Assembly (NCBI GenBank): GCA_902781895.1
Contig: CACZLA010000026.1
Coordinates: forward strand, 1 to 32,024
From: an uncultured Lachnospiraceae bacterium
GTDB lineage: Bacteria; Bacillota; Clostridia; Lachnospirales; Lachnospiraceae
DNA length: 32,024 nt
Reading direction: 5' to 3'
Shown: positions 2,737-31,781 of the stretch, piece by piece
Layout: the number at the start of each line of letters is the position of its first letter
How positions within the stretch are numbered: the stretch's first letter is position 1
Notes under the pieces: model-generated
What the model was told of the DNA's origin: nothing
Seen by the model: the letters and a program-made list of their open reading frames with translations, nothing else
Database searches by the model: none
Made by a program: the position numbers and the translations under genes

Positions 2737-3432
2737 TCAGACACCTCTTTTTCTAAGCAGGAGAACAACCTTTCCTTTTGTATCCTTCATGGGGATGCCA
2801 CCATAGGTCCGGCTGTCTGTAGCATCCGGTCTGTAGTCATTCAGAACAAACAGCGAGTCATTTGGCACCGTGTAAGGAAAACTGATCTTTGCTCCTTCGC
2901 CGGTTGTAGGATATACAGTATCTTCATAAAGACCGTATCCATTTACCGTTAGTCCCTCATCTCCGATGTCAACCACCTCTCCGGCTTCTGCGACGATACG
3001 TCCAAAATGGATAGTTCCATCCACTTCGTAAGCTATCTCATCGCCCTTATGCAGCTGGGCCAGTTTAAATGTGAGACACAGATCTCCATCCTTCACCATA
3101 GGATAGCCGGTGTTACTGTGATTTACATATACTCCAACAACAAAATAAAGAAGAAGCACCACAACAAGAGCAGTTACGCCAACCTTTATAAAAAATGAGA
3201 TTGCATACTGTTTAGCTGTTTTCTTCTTCTTTGAATCTTTCTTTTTTCCGTTTCCCACACCTTTTGAAACACTCTTTTCAGTGCTTTTGTGAGTATTATT
3301 TACTGCGCTTTTCTGAGCACTAATCACTGTGCTTTTCTGAGCACTATTTTCTGTGTTTCTCTCAATTTCCGCAGACTTTGCTTTAACTAACTTACTTCTG
3401 TCTACGATTACTTTCTCTTTCTCCTCACTCAT
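2737..3432 (-). CDS. SipA-like signal peptidase homologue lacking catalytic Ser/Lys
   Basis: A 231-residue type I signal-peptidase-fold protein. Residues 1-75 form a long, Lys/Ser-rich cytoplasmic segment with degenerate AQKS/THKS repeats. One membrane helix follows (about 76-103), then the outer domain. Family boxes are recognisable: the substrate-site box is NTGYPMVKDGD (107-117), where active enzymes have Ser-Met-x-Pro, and the general-base box is HFGRIVAEAGE (142-152), where Lys is expected before Arg but Gly is present. Box E (LNDYRPDATDSRTYGG) is well kept. Streptococcal SipA of FCT pilus loci has also lost its Ser/Lys dyad and acts as a pilus assembly factor. Position before fctA- and sortase-like genes supports the same role here. 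The catalytic loss is read by eye from motif alignment. Confidence 0.85.
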   Translation of the reverse strand: MSEEKEKVIVDRSKLVKAKSAEIERNTENSAQKSTVISAQKSAVNNTHKSTEKSVSKGVGNGKKKDSKKKKTAKQYAISFFIKVGVTALVVVLLLYFVVGVYVNHSNTGYPMVKDGDLCLTFKLAQLHKGDEIAYEVDGTIHFGRIVAEAGEVVDIGDEGLTVNGYGLYEDTVYPTTGEGAKISFPYTVPNDSLFVLNDYRPDATDSRTYGGIPMKDTKGKVVLLLRKRGV

Positions 3433-18240: not shown

Positions 18241-21084
18241 TCATCTGCAGACCCCGTCTGCATCAATCCACCAGCCATCAATATATCTACTGGTTACCAT
18301 GTATCCATCTGTACCGAAATAATACCAGCAGCTGTTTATCTTAAGCCAGCTTCCTGATGGCCACCAGCCTGAAATATCCTCAACCCACCAGCCTGATGAG
18401 TTATTCTTCCATGATAAAAGATATCTGTCATCCCAGGAACCATCAGAGTTAAACCAATATCCATTATAGTATTCATTAGCTGCCATATAGCCGTCTGGTC
18501 TGAAATAGTACCAGACTCCGTCTATCTTCTGCCACTGATCCTTCGGATACCAACCATCTGTATCTTCAACCCACCATCCGGTTGAGTTGCACTTCCACAT
18601 AAGTGTTCCGCTATAGATCTGCCTTCCGTCAGCATCATACCATTTACCATTAATCCACTCATTGGAATACTTTGGTTTGTCGGCATTCTTGTTTCCGGAA
18701 TCCTTATTAGCGTTATTATTTGAACTATTATTGTTCGAATTATTATTTGAGTTATTATTATTTGAAGTGTTGTTATTCTCTTTATTGTTCTGATTGTTCT
18801 GATTGTTCTGATTGTTCTGATTGTTCTGATTGTTATCCTTGTTTTTATCCTTATTGTTGTCTTCTTTATTATCATCAGTGAGCATTGGAATCTCTTCCTG
18901 TGCTACAAGAACAGCCTTACAAACCGAACAATGCTTTCCTTCTGTAAGTCCTGTTGAAGTAGTTGTTGGTTCAACTCGTTCATCTGTTACTTCAACATGA
19001 CCGGTCGCCTGTATAACATCACCTTCTATTTTGTTATGGCACATAGAGCATTCCCTGTCAGCATGTTTTCCATTTTCGGTACATGTAGCAGCTTTAGCAG
19101 ACCCTGTTACCTCCTGATAATCATGATTTATCATATCGATTGGTTCTGTCTTGGTGCCACTGCATTTTGAACAGGTAAATGTTTTGATACCTTTTTCTTT
19201 ACATGTAGGAGCTTTTGTTTCAACTCCTTCTCCCCATTCATGTTCACATTCACTGAGCATCGGAATTTCTTCCTGTGCAACTAATACTGCGTTACAAACC
19301 GAGCAGTGTTTTCCTTCAGTAAGTCCTGTAGATGTTGTTGTAGGCTCAACCCTTACATCTATCACCTCTGTATGGCCATTGGCAGGAATAGTTGTCTGAG
19401 CTACAAGAACTGAATTACATGCCGAACAATGACTTCCTTCTGTAAGTCCGGTTTCAGTACATGTAGGAGCCTTTGCATCATCCTTAACAGGAGTATGGCC
19501 TTTAGCTTTAATATCCTCAGTTTTTGTTTCTCCGCACTTAGAGCATGTAAATGTTTTCACGCCCTTCTGGGTACAAGTAGGAGCCTTTGTCTCTACTCCA
19601 TCTCCCCAATCATGGTCACAATCATCCAACAGATCATTATAATCAAATCTCAGATCTATTTCGGCAATATCGTCAGTTGTCATTAAAGACTTAGGTACAT
19701 CTGCATCATCCTTATATGCCAGATAAAGTGCCGCAGCTGCACCAACAAGGCCGGCGTTATAATCAAGAGCAACCTCGTTACACTGATAATCACTCTGTGA
19801 ATCAGTATAGGTTCCATTTGAATCCTTAGGTCCACCTACAAGAGCACCAAGGAGCGTATGCTTGTCAGAGGAAATCTGGCCGGAATCTCCGGAAGCAGAT
19901 GCAGCTCTATGGTGCGGATACTGAGATGAATTCTCATTATATCCGACAACATAACATTGATTCTGATCATTATTTCCAAGCAGATAATCCATCTGCCCCT
20001 TTGACCAACTCTTGTAGCTGCTGTTTCCACTCGCTTTATCATACATAAGGCCAAGCATCATAGTGTCACAGTCATATCTTGCACTTCCCCACTGAAGAAG
20101 ACAGTTATAGCCTGTTTCGGTTGTTTTCATATTACCAGCACAGTTATTAAGAGCACCGGAATCTCCCGTTCCGTAATAATCCGCAAGTGCACTTACTCCA
20201 TCCCATGAGAACCAGCTCCATATATTGTAACCACCGAGACCACCATTTTTCACACTATTAAATTCATCTTTATATGTATGATCATTTGTAGCCTTGTAAA
20301 GAAGCGCAGCTGCAAGTGCATAATCATCGCCCCAGGACTGAGAATCATACAAATACGCATTTGTCGAATTATCCCAAAGACCATCTGTAGCAACGGCCTT
20401 ATCATGACTTTTTGCATATTCAAAAAGCTTTTCTGCATATTCAAGTGCTGTTGTATCACCGAAGTTGATATATTGGAGAGTAAGCGCCGAAACAGCCTCG
20501 CTAACCTCATCCGTTGCAGGATTGTTATCTTTTGAATAATAAACCGGTCTGCTTCCGGTTTGATTTTCGGGAGCTCCCCAATAATCATGATCAGATCCGT
20601 CACCGACCTGATAAATAAAGCACTTAACAGAACCATCAGCATTTAACACGGTACATTTCTCAAAATATTCACAGAAATGGTCAGTTATTATTTTTAAATG
20701 ATCAGCTGAATCTGTGTCTGCAAAGGCCTGTGGGAATTCCAGATATGATATTCCTAAAATAGTTGCTGAATATCCCTGTGTAATACCAAACTTTCCATGA
20801 TCTCCGGCGTCATGATATCCACCACTGACATCAATCGTCTCACCATCGATTACAACTGAATCAGAAGTATGACAATCATCTCTCCAGGAAAATGCAGACC
20901 TCTCACCTACGTCTGAACCACACATATTAGCATCGTAAAAATACAGTGATTCCTGTAGAAGCTTAGCATAATTGTATTCACCAACATCTGCAGCTTCAGT
21001 GTTTATCTTTGAAACACACATCATTGATACTGCCATAACCCCCGTCAAAGCAATACTTATACCTTTTTTTACCGACTTCAGCAA
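18241..21084 (-). CDS. Secreted GH9 endoglucanase with Cys-rich repeats and cell-wall-binding repeats
   Basis: A 947-residue extracellular cellulase. Signal peptide 1-31. The GH9 catalytic domain (about 34-485) has HDAGDH (91-96, with the nucleophile and water-positioning Asp pair), HHRAAS (391-396) and the acid Glu in CNEVALDYNAG (about 437). Residues 489-736 hold about six zinc-ribbon-like repeats (TCTxKGxxTFTCSKCGxTKTE and GLTEGKHCSVCxAVLVAQ). Residues about 737-810 are an Asn/Gln-rich linker. About 811-947 are Trp-rich cell-wall-binding repeats (GWWVEDTDGWYP, IDGVWYYFRPDGYM). No dockerin or CBM was seen. Anchoring would be through the wall repeats. The start is a TTG at 21084 with GGAGG 7 bases upstream. 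Confidence 0.93.
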   Translation of the reverse strand: MLKSVKKGISIALTGVMAVSMMCVSKINTEAADVGEYNYAKLLQESLYFYDANMCGSDVGERSAFSWRDDCHTSDSVVIDGETIDVSGGYHDAGDHGKFGITQGYSATILGISYLEFPQAFADTDSADHLKIITDHFCEYFEKCTVLNADGSVKCFIYQVGDGSDHDYWGAPENQTGSRPVYYSKDNNPATDEVSEAVSALTLQYINFGDTTALEYAEKLFEYAKSHDKAVATDGLWDNSTNAYLYDSQSWGDDYALAAALLYKATNDHTYKDEFNSVKNGGLGGYNIWSWFSWDGVSALADYYGTGDSGALNNCAGNMKTTETGYNCLLQWGSARYDCDTMMLGLMYDKASGNSSYKSWSKGQMDYLLGNNDQNQCYVVGYNENSSQYPHHRAASASGDSGQISSDKHTLLGALVGGPKDSNGTYTDSQSDYQCNEVALDYNAGLVGAAAALYLAYKDDADVPKSLMTTDDIAEIDLRFDYNDLLDDCDHDWGDGVETKAPTCTQKGVKTFTCSKCGETKTEDIKAKGHTPVKDDAKAPTCTETGLTEGSHCSACNSVLVAQTTIPANGHTEVIDVRVEPTTTSTGLTEGKHCSVCNAVLVAQEEIPMLSECEHEWGEGVETKAPTCKEKGIKTFTCSKCSGTKTEPIDMINHDYQEVTGSAKAATCTENGKHADRECSMCHNKIEGDVIQATGHVEVTDERVEPTTTSTGLTEGKHCSVCKAVLVAQEEIPMLTDDNKEDNNKDKNKDNNQNNQNNQNNQNNQNNKENNNTSNNNNSNNNSNNNSSNNNANKDSGNKNADKPKYSNEWINGKWYDADGRQIYSGTLMWKCNSTGWWVEDTDGWYPKDQWQKIDGVWYYFRPDGYMAANEYYNGYWFNSDGSWDDRYLLSWKNNSSGWWVEDISGWWPSGSWLKINSCWYYFGTDGYMVTSRYIDGWWIDADGVCR
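18785..18829. repeat. Five tandem copies of a 9-bp coding repeat in the GH9 linker
   Basis: TTGTTCTGA is repeated five times in a row (minus strand encodes Gln-Asn-Asn units). It is prone to slippage, so linker length probably varies among strains. Being a multiple of 3, changes keep the frame. Confidence 0.9.
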
Positions 21085-23671: not shown

Positions 23672-23700
23672 TTGAATCTTGTGTAAAAATTTGATATATT
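23672..23700 (+). promoter_or_regulatory. Promoter of the reverse transcriptase gene
   Basis: TTGAAT (23672-23677), 17-base spacer, TATATT (23695-23700) with an extended TGA before the -10. The start of transcription should be near 23707, about 30 bases ahead of the ATG. The gene therefore has its own promoter, opposite to all its neighbours. Confidence 0.7.
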
Positions 23701-23737
23701 TTCCTTTGTTAAGTAAATGTACTTTGGAGGTACAAAA

Positions 23738-24988
23738 ATGGAATCAAATATCAATAACTCAGATATGAATCAGTCTGAAAATAAAGGTATTTTTTATGAG
23801 GCTTTAAGCGAAGAAAACCGCGAAAGATTTATTAGGCATCGAGACACCAGAGATAATCACTACGACGGTATATTTGAGGAAATGGCTTCATATATAAGGA
23901 GTGATGAATGCACCAAAGATCTGTATAAACTTATAGACGGAAACTACGAAATGCTGACACCGCCTTATCATTTCAGAATCCCCAAAAACTTCAGCGGAAG
24001 AAAAAGGGATATCTATACCTGGTATGGTAACACCAGATATCTGGTTAAACTGATTGCTTATTGTCTGAGAAAATATGATTATAAATATCCTGATGGACTA
24101 TACTCATTCAGAACAAAACTCACTGCACGTGACTTTCTTTTGAAGCTCAGAAACTTCGAAGGAATAGAAAACTATTATATAGTAAAAGCCGATGTATCAA
24201 ATTATGTCGGTTCTATCGTCCCGGAACAGATCATCCCCATGCTTGAAGAATTATGGAGTGATGATCCGGCCTTTCTTAATCTTTTAAAACACATATTACT
24301 TCAAAAGAAGGTTATAGAAAGAGATGGAAGTATTGTAGATGCTGAACCAGGTGGTCTGGGCGGAATTCCGCTTGCAAATCACTTTATGAATATATATCTC
24401 ACTGAGCTGGACAGACACTTCTATCCTATAGCTCCGCTTTACTGTCGATATTCTGACGATATCATTATATTTGCCAGAACTAAAGAAGAAGCCGAGGAAT
24501 ATATAGAGTATTATTATTCAGTTCTTGAGAAAAGAAAGCTGCATACAAACAATGAAAAGACATATCTTATCCAGCCGGGCGAATCAGTTGATATACTCGG
24601 ATGCCGGATGAAAGACGGAAATATGGATATATCCGATCATGCAAAAAACAAGCTTAAACGAAAGATACGTATTCATGCCAACAGACTGATAAAAAGAAAA
24701 AAACGCCAGGGCATTTCTGATGAAGAAGCCGGTAAGATGATGATAGACTATTGTCATAATATTTTCTTTGGAATAAACAAAAAGAGTGAGCTGACATGGT
24801 CAAGATGGATTTTCCCTGTTATTACGGAAACAACATCACTTAAGGAATTGGATAATTATATTCAGAATGCCATAAGATATGTAATAGCCGGATCCTTCGC
24901 TAACAAAAAATACAGGACTACATATGAGGATCTTAAAAAACTGGGCTACAGAAGTCTGGTTCATTCATATTACCATTTCGAACACTAA
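23738..24988 (+). CDS. Stand-alone reverse transcriptase, unassigned group
   Basis: The start is set at the ATG at 23738 (MESNINNSDMNQSENKG): GGAGG lies at 23726-23730 and an earlier in-frame ATG at 23717 would include that SD. 416 residues. RT motifs in order: fingers at about 77-125 (PYHFRIPKNFSGRKRDIYTW, LYSFRTKLTARDFL), first catalytic Asp in VKADVSNYVGSI (152), GGLGGIPLANHFMNIYL (205-221) where most RTs have a QG core, the active site YSDD (238-241), and DILGCRMKDGN (285-295). A basic helix (NKLKRKIRIHANRLIKRKKR) and a thumb-like C-terminus follow. There is no maturase X, HNH, protease, primase or integrase domain and no retron VTG motif. It is probably one of the unknown or defence-type bacterial RT groups; the exact group needs a phylogeny. 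It is the only plus-strand gene here. Confidence 0.93.
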   Translation: MESNINNSDMNQSENKGIFYEALSEENRERFIRHRDTRDNHYDGIFEEMASYIRSDECTKDLYKLIDGNYEMLTPPYHFRIPKNFSGRKRDIYTWYGNTRYLVKLIAYCLRKYDYKYPDGLYSFRTKLTARDFLLKLRNFEGIENYYIVKADVSNYVGSIVPEQIIPMLEELWSDDPAFLNLLKHILLQKKVIERDGSIVDAEPGGLGGIPLANHFMNIYLTELDRHFYPIAPLYCRYSDDIIIFARTKEEAEEYIEYYYSVLEKRKLHTNNEKTYLIQPGESVDILGCRMKDGNMDISDHAKNKLKRKIRIHANRLIKRKKRQGISDEEAGKMMIDYCHNIFFGINKKSELTWSRWIFPVITETTSLKELDNYIQNAIRYVIAGSFANKKYRTTYEDLKKLGYRSLVHSYYHFEH

Positions 24989-24992
24989 AAAA

Positions 24993-25113
24993 AGAGAAGG
25001 GGAAATTTTAGCGTGCGCCAACAAAATCGGCTTTCAGCTTCGGCCGTTCTCAAAGCCTTTTTTACAAAGCTGTGTCCGGTTCCCTGAGAACACTAATTAC
25101 AGCACCCTTCTCT
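24993..25113 (+). ncRNA. Predicted structured RNA directly behind the reverse transcriptase gene
   Basis: AGAGAAGGG (24993-25001) pairs perfectly with CCCTTCTCT (25105-25113), enclosing 103 bases. Inside, GTTCTCA (25046-25052) pairs with TGAGAAC (25085-25091), and CGGC (25028-25031) can pair with GCCG (25043-25046, sharing one base with the previous stem). CAGCTT (25035-25040) and AAGCTG (25067-25072) offer an alternative pairing. The outer stem opens 4 bases after the RT stop. The arrangement recalls the RNA partners of retrons, DGRs and other RT systems, but no RT family was matched. The pairing is visible; the RNA function is inference. Confidence 0.5.
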
Positions 25114-25165
25114 ATAGATGGGTATTTTAAAACAAATGTTGTAAAAAGTCAAAAATAAATATGTG

Positions 25166-25493
25166 CATCGTTCATAGATTGGCACAAGTAGTATTCGGAA
25201 AGTCCGCACTTCGTTATCATCCGCAGGTTTTGTTCCAAATAGTATTCGGAAACCGTGACTTCGTCACTCTCCGCTTGTAAGCAAGCACATCATCTCCCAG
25301 CGCTGGGAACCTTCTTCACTAATAATCATCCGCAGGGTTTGGCCCACCAGTATTCGGAACAAAATATACGTACATCGTTCATAGATTGGTCCAAGTAGTA
25401 TTCGGAAAGTACGCACTTCGTTATCATCCGCAGGTTTTGTTCCAAATAGTATTCGGAAATCGTGACTTCGTCACTCTCCGCTTGTAAACAAGC
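25166..25493. repeat. Array of five hairpin modules in a 207-bp duplication
   Basis: Two copies of about 120 bp start with CATCGTTCATAGATTGG at 25166 and 25373 (period 207). Each holds two modules and a fifth lies between. A module is TTG-N3-CAA (25179, 25230, 25339 as CAC, 25386, 25437), then AGTATTCGGAA 10-11 bases on (25190, 25241, 25349, 25397, 25448). In four modules a hairpin closed by CGGA and TCCG follows: AAGT-loop-ACTT, or GTGAC-TTC-GTCAC. GCTTG-TAAR-CAAGC follows the second type. ATCATCCGCAGG ends three units (25216, 25325, 25423), and an inverted copy lies at 25598-25609. A 14-bp palindrome (TCCCAGCGCTGGGA, 25295-25308) sits in the middle spacer. Confidence 0.85.
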
Positions 25494-25531
25494 TATTTTC
25501 CTCATACATATTTGAAACAAACCATTCTGGT

Positions 25532-25597
25532 TTAAGAAATAATAAAAGGTCCATAGTTGTATGCAAGCATACCTATGGACCTTTTATTATTTCTTAA
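25532..25597. terminator. 25-bp perfect inverted repeat between RT array and groEL
   Basis: The arm at 25532-25556 (TTAAGAAATAATAAAAGGTC...) is the exact complement of 25573-25597. The 16-base loop contains GTATGC-AA-GCATAC. It lies 20 bases behind the groEL stop and behind the RT array. U-rich sequence occurs in both arms, so it could terminate transcripts from both sides. The stem is longer than an ordinary terminator, so a small inverted-repeat element is also possible. A smaller hairpin (AAACCA-TTC-TGGTTT, 25519-25533) abuts it. Confidence 0.8.
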
Positions 25598-25617
25598 CCT
25601 GCGGATGATGTTCCTTT

Positions 25618-30317: not shown

Positions 30318-31781
30318 TTAATAATCTTCCTCTTCCATCTGTCCGGGAAGCACAACCTTCTGTGGCTCCGGATCCTCACGCTCTGTTTTCTTTTTCATGG
30401 ATTCAACCGATTCCTGCGGTACTTGTTCAACCGATTCCTGCTGTGCTTGTTCAACAGGTTCCTGTGGTTCTTGTTCAACAGGAACTACTTCTTCGGCAGG
30501 AACTACCTCAAAAGCGCTGTCAACACCGTACGGTCTTTCCTTCATTGCTTTTTCTATATTTGAAATATCATCCTCGGCAGGAGGAACATTTACTCCGGAA
30601 TTGTTATCCAGAGCTTCTTCGATAAGAATTTCACCTGTATCTTCATTAACACCATAACTGTGATTCTTACCCGTCTTAGCTATATAACCTTCATCAGATG
30701 ACTCTTCGATGCCATTATCTTCCTGTTTTTCACCGTTTCTGATTATAGGCCCATCTTCATCTTCATCATCTTCGCCATCTTCCTCATCGCCATAAAGACG
30801 ATTCTGAAGGATACCGTTTTTAACAACAAGAATTATGATTACGACACACATGATGACAAATATGATTATCATCATAATAAGGAGTCTTTTCAGTGATTTC
30901 TTTCCGAGAAATCCCTCATCCTCCTGATCTGTGTCAGTTTTTTTATCAGCTATAAGAGGAGTCGCTTTTTTTACCGGCTGACTCTCCGTGAGTTCCTCCT
31001 TTTGCTCATCCGACGATACGGCATCTGAAGCAGTCGCTGCATCCAGGAGATATTTTACAGATTCATATCTTATTAAGGTTCCTTCAACAGGATCATAGTA
31101 ATATGCTCCTGTTTCTTCATCAGCATTGATGGCATATACAAGATAAAGATCACTTCCATAGGAGTCCTTATATGCAATCAGCTGGACATCATTTATTTTA
31201 AGATCTCTTTCCTCAAAGCCCTCGGGAAGCTTAACATCATCCGGTTTATTTATGATAGTGTACTGCAACCCATCCATCTTATATAGAACGGAAGGCGCGT
31301 TACTCTCATCCTGCTCTTCTTTCTTATCTTCCTGCTCATCCTCTTTTTCTGTCGTAGCCTCTGTCTTTTTACCGATAGTCAGCTGTCCACCGGCAGCAAC
31401 TACATTTAACTTAGCTCCATCGGAATTATAGAATTCACCGTTTGTAGTTGAGAAATATGCATTTCCCTCAGCAGTTGTTACAAAACTGAAGGAAACTGAT
31501 GTGGCACCTGTTCCGCTTATGGGAAGGATCCCGTCTGTTCCTGAACTGTTACTTACAAGCCCTGAAGGATATTTCAGACTGAAATCATAATTTCCAACAG
31601 ATTCACCCTTTATTGTAACGGTGACCGTAACTGTTTCACCTACATCGGCAGTTTCAGGCCATATAGCAAGGGTTACGGATGCATCCTCTGCGTAAGTATC
31701 ATTTACTTCAATGAAACAAACAGACAGCACCATAACCAAAGCCAGTGCAAAAAACACCGTACTTTTAAGTTTACTTTTCAT
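30318..31781 (-). CDS. Membrane-anchored cohesin-like protein with acidic cytoplasmic tail
   Basis: The start is set at the ATG at 31781 ([17 protein letters not shown]), which has AAGGAG before it; 487 residues. Signal peptide about 1-31. Residues about 33-140 ([54 protein letters not shown]) look like a cohesin/carbohydrate-binding-type beta sandwich. An acidic Lys/Glu linker, a second small domain (about 170-240, [20 protein letters not shown]) and a membrane helix ([21 protein letters not shown], about 297-317) follow. The tail is acidic, with EDDEDEDG and [12 protein letters not shown] repeats, and should face the cytoplasm. Cohesins bind dockerins, but no dockerin is seen in this window, so the partner is unknown. 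It could link outside binding to an internal partner. Confidence 0.75.

What the first reader, a model, noticed from the sequence alone, without database searches (positions are those of the whole stretch)
23672..25597. Lone reverse transcriptase with a structured RNA and a hairpin array in one apparent transcription unit
Seen: own promoter, plus-strand RT against a minus-strand background, a stem-closed RNA starting 4 bases past the RT stop, five hairpin modules, and a shared 25-bp inverted repeat that could end the transcript. Known: retrons, DGRs and defence RTs use nearby noncoding RNAs as templates or primers. Inference: the RNA and/or array may be the template or cofactor of this RT. The order RT, structured RNA, repeat array matches no system I can name.
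Basis: partly seen in the sequence, partly recalled or inferred. Interest (0 to 1): 0.8.

Follow-up and report, generated by a model that had tools for sequence, protein, structure and literature searches.

The report
UG26 reverse transcriptase with pseudoknotted RNA
A bacterium of the family Lachnospiraceae (by its relatives) carries a lone reverse transcriptase of an uncharacterised family paired with its own small knotted RNA, encoded just behind the gene but on the opposite strand; such pairs may make DNA against phages, while the nearby hairpin array is an unrelated neighbour.

Summary
The RT (23738-24988, +) is a UG26 reverse transcriptase (PADLOC RT_UG26, E 6e-109). The structured RNA is real and belongs to the RT, but its sense strand is MINUS (24991-25115), convergent to the RT: a model built from related RNAs, none of them of the window's group, hits it there (E 4e-7), and the region's best promoter-like site lies just in front of it.

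The RNA family has a closing stem and an H-type pseudoknot with covariation in three subfamilies. In 397 family genomes, 32 of 34 hits of one RNA model (20 of the 22 outside its training set) lie upstream of and co-directional with a related RT. In congeners the RNA lies behind the RT, once as four tandem copies; seven copies have no RT in the fetched flanks, all in RT-carrying genomes.

The hairpin array and 25-bp inverted repeat do not belong: in four congeners they follow groEL without an RT there.

Best reading: an RT-ncRNA complex making ncRNA-templated cDNA, as Class 2 DRTs do (inferred). No UG26 RNA was found in the held literature. Template, product and defence are untested.

The parts
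23738..24988 (+). UG26 reverse transcriptase CDS (416 aa; the frame also opens at 23717), RYSDD active site
   Evidence: PADLOC RT_UG26 362 bits, E 6e-109; RVT_1; AlphaFold model pLDDT 88.9 with RT folds as best PDB matches
24991..25115 (-). Structured ncRNA, sense strand minus, convergent to the RT
   Evidence: CM R3 hit on minus strand, 38.7 bits, E 4.7e-7 and 4.3e-7; CM R2, trained on it, finds the same place
24994..25112 (-). P1 closing stem of the ncRNA (25112-25105 with 25001-24994)
   Evidence: 8 of 8 pairs
25046..25091 (-). P2 of the pseudoknot (25091-25085 with 25052-25046), GUUCUCA/UGAGAAC
   Evidence: 7 of 7 pairs; GUUUUCA/UGAAAAC in L119
25024..25082 (-). P3 of the pseudoknot: P3a (25082-25076 with 25030-25024) and P3b (25072-25067 with 25040-25035)
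   Evidence: P3b, window against L003: 7 pairs kept with both sides changed in the same register, 0 or 1 in five other registers; one C.A mismatch in P3a of the window
25124..25152 (-). Promoter-like site TTGACT-17-TAAAAT just in front of the ncRNA 5' end
   Evidence: best of 7 sites in the region, 10 of 12; the number of sites is at chance
24987..24993 (-). T-run following P1 on the minus strand (possible terminator, by eye), overlapping the RT stop codon
   Evidence: sequence
25151..25610 (-). NOT part of the system: hairpin array and bidirectional 25-bp inverted repeat of the groEL 3' side
   Evidence: homologues behind groEL in G401, G402, G411, G412 without an RT there

Best explanation
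This is a two-component UG26 reverse transcriptase system. A ~125-nt ncRNA, encoded on the strand opposite to the RT gene and probably transcribed from its own promoter, folds into a closed stem (P1) holding an H-type pseudoknot (P2/P3) (supported by homology and covariation). The RT binds this RNA in trans (inferred from co-occurrence and from varying gene order) and uses the fast-varying stretch between the pseudoknot and the 3' strand of P1 as template for a short, probably repeated cDNA, as Class 2 DRT enzymes do (inferred). The cDNA or the RNA-protein complex acts against phages (inferred from other DRT groups only). The hairpin array is not a component.
For: RT_UG26 match. CM R1 in 397 family genomes: 34 hits, 32 upstream and co-directional with a related RT (20 of the 22 hits outside the training set); by untrained genomes, 19 of 20 hit genomes are among 25 RT genomes of 385, p 5e-26. 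CM R2: 3 hits, the 3 genomes with window-type RTs; G193 is the untrained one. CM R3 in 61 genus genomes: 18 hits in 8 genomes, all 8 RT-bearing; untrained genomes 3 of 3, p 0.001. Core pattern in 84,980 genomes: 3 hits, each beside a UG26-type RT, one of them a source of the pattern and one its near-copy. Pseudoknot covariation in A2, A3, A4: 50, 88, 47 both-side-changed cells, 0 of 500 shuffles as high in each, and window against L003. Minus strand: all six window-group RNAs are hit by R3 on that strand, 33-55 bits. Arrangement follows the RT tree: 7 changes against 13.6 shuffled, 0 of 200 as low. P4-plus-tail stretch: 0.49 identity among four copies of one array, 0.68-0.92 elsewhere. DRT9 and DRT2 RT-ncRNA structures are among the Foldseek hits.
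Against: No transcript, RNA binding, cDNA or phage assay. The A-B-A' template repeat of DRT10 was not enriched in the window group, tested on the plus strand only (449 of 500 shuffles as high), nor clearly in two other groups (38 and 51 of 500); one group (0 of 500) is confounded by hairpin repeats. One covariation measure, further pair types, was not above shuffles in A2 (125 of 500) and weak in A3 (22 of 500). Nine window genes scanned have no PADLOC match at E 1e-10 and look like housekeeping or secreted proteins, one without a Pfam family. RT G307 has no detected RNA and G301 only a weak match. P3a of the window has a C.A mismatch on the minus strand. The top Foldseek hits are group II-type RTs. 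Whether UG26 is placed in Class 2 I could not check.
Confidence: 0.6

Rival explanations
1. The ncRNA is a structural or allosteric partner only: the RT makes untemplated or otherwise templated DNA, and the RNA holds or inhibits it.
For: Co-occurrence and pseudoknot do not show templating. No A-B-A' signal in the window group on the plus strand.
Against: Characterised Class 2 systems use the ncRNA as template (PMC12632851, text parts 1-3; PMC13174585, passages). One stretch varies fastest between copies of one array.
Confidence: 0.22
2. The RNA is a cis-regulator or antisense regulator of the RT mRNA (convergent overlap) rather than a partner of the RT protein.
For: In the window the RNA's 3' end abuts the RT stop codon on the other strand.
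Against: In relatives RNAs of the family lie upstream in sense, downstream in sense, divergent, or with no RT in the fetched flanks.
Confidence: 0.06
3. One reading: RT, RNA and hairpin array in one + strand transcript, the array serving the RT.
For: Proximity and order.
Against: The RNA is on the minus strand; the array follows groEL in four congeners without an RT there.
Confidence: 0.03
4. A decayed or regulatory relic of a group II intron.
For: Group II RTs are the best structural and NCBIfam matches.
Against: No Rfam match at gathering score in the window except a tRNA; group_II_RT_mat 80 bits against a cut-off of 300; a specific UG26 match at 362 bits.
Confidence: 0.02

Closest known systems
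UG26 reverse transcriptases (PADLOC RT_UG26; UG/Abi groups)
   Same: RT matches at 362 bits over positions 9-396 of 398
   Different: No ncRNA, partner or function for UG26 was found in the held library; in the window's clade the partner protein of the other clade was not found
DRT10 (UG17), PMC12632851
   Same: Single RT with a structured ncRNA of similar size; poorly conserved stretch after inner stems
   Different: DRT10 has a SLATT partner and its ncRNA upstream of that gene; RT_UG17 scores 77 bits here against 362 for UG26; A-B-A' not supported
DRT2 and DRT9
   Same: RT plus ncRNA (abstracts in the listing); the DRT2 ncRNA also has a pseudoknot (PMC12596737, passages); related RT fold
   Different: Different RT groups by profile; DRT2 ncRNA was retrieved upstream of the RT; a DRT9-like poly-U template was not examined here
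DRT3
   Same: ncRNA encoded downstream of an RT gene (PMC13174585, passage)
   Different: Two RT subunits; here one RT
Clostridiales-1 RNA (Rfam RF01699)
   Same: The array's end resembles it on the minus strand (36.8 bits, cut-off 48); 6 copies above cut-off elsewhere in this genome
   Different: Below cut-off at the array; no link to the RT

Membership tests
UG26 RT | Match to the RT_UG26 profile better than to other UG profiles | tested here: met
   362 bits against 79 for the next profile, a generic RT model; RT_UG17 77
UG26 RT | Intact catalytic motif | tested here: met
   RYSDD in the window; both D invariant in 50 of 50 aligned RTs
UG26 RT with its ncRNA (defined here) | Conserved pseudoknotted RNA at the locus | tested here: met
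UG26 RT with its ncRNA (defined here) | Partner gene (129-293 aa) upstream of the RNA, as in clade B | tested here: not met
   found in 26 of 50 loci, all clade B, plus the second contig of G089; not in the 32-kb window nor in the fetched flanks of clade A loci
DRT (defence-associated RT) | Protection against phage | not testable with these tools
   needs phage challenge
DRT (defence-associated RT) | Location among defence genes | tested here: not met
   9 window genes scanned: no PADLOC match at E 1e-10; 8 of 9 have Pfam matches of other kinds, 1 none; the other window genes were not scanned
DRT10 | A-B-A' template after a stable stem-loop | tested here: inconclusive
   the window group was tested on the plus strand only
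DRT10 | SLATT gene | tested here: not met
   no such match among the 9 window genes scanned, both flanking genes included
Retron | Retron RT family | tested here: not met
   retron_St85_RT 46 bits against cut-off 235, the only retron model listed
Group II intron | Maturase equivalog and intron RNA | tested here: not met
   80 bits against 300; no Rfam intron match at gathering
Diversity-generating retroelement | TR/VR pair with adenine-specific differences | not tested
   the 136-nt repeat pair (93%) lies in the groEL array, related to arrays in genomes without an RT there

The most novel reading that the evidence does not exclude
One RT is served by a set of interchangeable ncRNAs encoded in tandem arrays and at remote sites, each keeping the pseudoknot that the RT recognises but carrying a different template stretch, so that the cell writes a repertoire of different cDNAs with a single enzyme. 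In the window's lineage this set has shrunk to one RNA on the opposite strand.
Probability: 0.2. Interest if true: 0.9.

Novelty: new variant of a known kind. Interest (0 to 1): 0.68.

Why it matters
UG26 appears in the held literature searched only as a name. This gives it a defined RNA partner with a covariation-supported pseudoknot, a predicted strand, promoter and boundaries, and two clades with different gene order. Movable and multi-copy RNAs suggest that the RT finds its RNA in trans, which would separate enzyme from template. It makes a specific experiment possible: pull down the RT, sequence RNA and cDNA, and read the template directly.

Tried and rejected
Plus-strand structure for the window RNA: abandoned when a model built without window-group sequences hit the other strand. 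CM R2 was built on the plus-strand alignment with an RNAalifold structure; it finds relatives by sequence but its structure should not be used. A-B-A' template search on 38 tails: sum 156 against 139.8 (sd 5.3), 1 of 500 shuffles as high overall, carried mainly by one group whose hairpins repeat letters; the window group was below its shuffles. A small by-eye hairpin P4 in the window group: dropped, stems of only 2-3 pairs. Partner protein as a restriction-endonuclease-like fold: the order of helices and strands invites it, but Foldseek gave no match at E below 0.001 and Pfam none above its cut-offs; left open. ABC-transporter neighbours: an eight-member cluster mixes C39-peptidase-like transporters (L003, L033, L037; Pfam run on L033 only) with other ABC proteins; not claimed as a functional partner. 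Viral contigs: none by protein or by RNA pattern; phage records: 2 distant RTs at 28-29% identity. The genome contigs protein scan found no relative. PADLOC RT_UG26 over 398 phylum genomes: 2 genomes at E 1e-50, the own one and one of the same family.

Full report
What is in the window. The RT is an intact + strand gene, 23738-24988 by its ribosome-binding site. PADLOC assigns it to UG26 with 362 bits; the next profile scores 79. Its model has pLDDT 88.9. The best structural matches are group II-type RTs (6ar1, TM 0.72; G2L4 RT, 9d4s), then the DRT9 RT-ncRNA complex (9nlv, rank 7), with DRT2 (9c0i) at rank 37. Nine window genes were scanned: groEL, groES, an OGG-type glycosylase, a Glu/Gln-tRNA synthetase family protein, a cytidine deaminase, a glycoside hydrolase, an M16 peptidase, a protein with a choline-binding-like repeat just under the Pfam cut-off, and one without a match; none matches PADLOC at E 1e-10. 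So no defence gene was seen beside this copy.

The array is a neighbour. The two 136-nt repeats and five modules have only 19-22 base matches elsewhere in this genome. In 41 genomes, own included, 5 have matches: this one and four congeners. In all four the array directly follows groEL, 93-96% identical as protein, and tblastn finds no RT in the locus. In two (L054, L055) the next gene is a homologue of the window's cytidine deaminase (79 and 67% identical), which in the window lies beyond the RT and a 637-aa gene. So RT, ncRNA and the 637-aa gene stand where these two genomes have none; that the array is older than the RT at this place is an inference, since loss is possible. The 25-bp repeat is most simply a bidirectional terminator (inference).

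Finding the RNA family. The first lead was L003, a 52% identical RT whose RNA region lies in front of the gene instead of behind it. A pattern of the core shared by L003 and the window, searched through 84,980 genomes, gave 3 hits, each beside a UG26-type RT: two C. aminophilum strains and Lachnospiraceae UBA3711, the last with two tandem copies. Flank comparison of 30 RT loci showed conserved blocks upstream of many RTs, and behind the RT in several congeners.

Structure. In three subfamily alignments (A2, 10 rows; A3, 15; A4, 8) I wrote P1, P2, P3 and local hairpins by eye and counted them. Cells paired: 87.8, 87.5 and 93.2%, against 38-54% when slid by 1-3 columns; cells changed on both sides 50, 88 and 47, with 0 of 500 shuffles as high in each; but further pair types was reached by 125, 22 and 2 of 500 shuffles. 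P2 is paired in 100, 97.1 and 100% of cells and P3, which crosses it, in 96.2, 97.5 and 91.1%; the last hairpin of A3 only in 58.8%. The structure came from these sequences, which favours cells paired over slid versions; the both-side changes are the stronger evidence. RNAalifold on A2, which allows no pseudoknot, chose P3, an extension of it and part of P1. For the window group, window and L003 keep 7 pairs of P3b with both sides changed in one register, against 0 or 1 in five other registers; the UBA3711 copies pair there less well (5 to 7 pairs).

Strand. Model R3 was built from eight RNAs that lie in sense behind the RT, without any window-group member. It hits the window at 24991-25115 on the minus strand with 38.7 bits, the four others first tested on the matching strand at 33-36 bits, and the sixth, L119, at 54.6 bits, E 2e-12. 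The best promoter-like site of the region, TTGACT-17-TAAAAT, lies at 25152-25124 on the minus strand just in front of the RNA; but the number of sites equals chance. In the outer pair of P3a the minus reading has G:U where the plus reading has A.C in four of five sequences; against this, the window has one C.A on the minus strand that would be G:U on plus. I conclude minus, with about 95% confidence, included.

Association. One search covered 397 family genomes: 39 RT loci of at least 100 bits in 37 genomes (tallied). Model R1 over 397 family genomes gave 34 hits: 32 upstream and co-directional with an RT, 21 to 776 nt from the start of the RT match; one on another contig of G089, which also carries the partner gene; one short hit (G321, E 0.008) without an RT. 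Twelve hits are training loci; of the other 22, 20 are upstream and co-directional. Model R2 gave 3 hits, the 3 genomes with window-type RTs, two of them training genomes; in G193 the RNA is 2.7 kb upstream, divergent. Adding G068, found only in the local search, 37 of 39 RTs have an RNA counting the split G089 locus; G301 has a weak match only (E 0.0014) and G307 none. In 61 genus genomes 12 have the RT. R3 hits 18 places in 8 genomes, all RT-bearing; 8 places are training loci; 11 are beside an RT and 7 have no RT in the fetched flanks of up to 1.5 kb, one of these weak (L116, 30.8 bits). The own genome has no R1 or R3 hit in the genome-wide searches, where stricter filters apply; R3 finds it in the window alone.

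Evolution. A tree of 49 RTs splits into clade A (12 rows, including the window) and clade B (37), support 100/100. Clade B has the RNA upstream in sense in 35 of 37 rows, often behind a partner gene (26 of 50 loci of both clades). Clade A has it behind the RT in sense (6 rows), divergent (3), convergent (the window) or not found at the RT (2), and no partner gene was found; the window is sister to L002 (98/97) within a group otherwise divergent, so its convergent order looks derived.

Mechanism. Shown by sequence: conserved RNA, pseudoknot, co-occurrence, varying gene order. Inferred: RT-RNA complex acting in trans; templating by the stretch between P3 and P1, because this is the fastest-varying part (0.49 identity among four copies of one array, 0.68-0.92 elsewhere) and is placed like the template of DRT10 (PMC12632851, parts 1-3 of 8 read). 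Against: no repeat signal. Defence is inferred from other DRT groups only.

Literature. In the held library 'UG26' with 'reverse transcriptase' occurs in 3 papers, one relevant, which names it in cold-seep viruses (listing and passages). Further listings and passages showed no UG26 RNA; PMC13213688 was read in part (1 of 2). The paper that I recall as defining the UG groups (Mestre et al. 2022) is not held, so a mention there cannot be excluded.

Noticed in passing
L063 (G412:C4) 772-1395: Four tandem ncRNA copies behind one UG26-type RT; by eye two pairs, copies 1 and 3 with TTGCAT-TATAAT-like promoters and each pair followed by a T-run hairpin; copies differ mainly between P3 and P1.
   Followed up: partly
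L110, L113 (G443); L109/L112/L115, L116 (G458); L105 (G448): Seven ncRNA copies with no RT in the fetched flanks, three of them in one array; all in genomes that carry the RT elsewhere.
   Followed up: partly
26 of 50 UG26-type loci, e.g. L006 2854-3378 (-): Uncharacterised partner protein (129-293 aa), mostly starting M-G-[FL]-[FL], C-terminal alpha/beta domain, no Pfam match above cut-off and no significant PDB fold match.
   Followed up: partly
L003, L033, L119, L037: C39-peptidase-type ABC transporter gene next to the RT/ncRNA locus (L119 by eye); in L003, L033 and L119 the ncRNA is co-directional with it.
   Followed up: partly
L002 (G193:C60): RT frame is open through an upstream gene that looks radical-SAM-like by eye, with no stop between (1281 codons), a possible fusion; its ncRNA is 2.7 kb upstream.
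   Followed up: no
L064 (G407): ncRNA behind the RT seems to lack most of its 5' half: perhaps a degenerate copy.
   Followed up: no
G000 contigs C2, C4, C14, C18: Six Clostridiales-1 RNA copies above cut-off in this genome; the groEL array's end resembles it weakly.
   Followed up: partly
window 18713-18843, 30402-30479, 3270-3362: Short tandem repeats.
   Followed up: no
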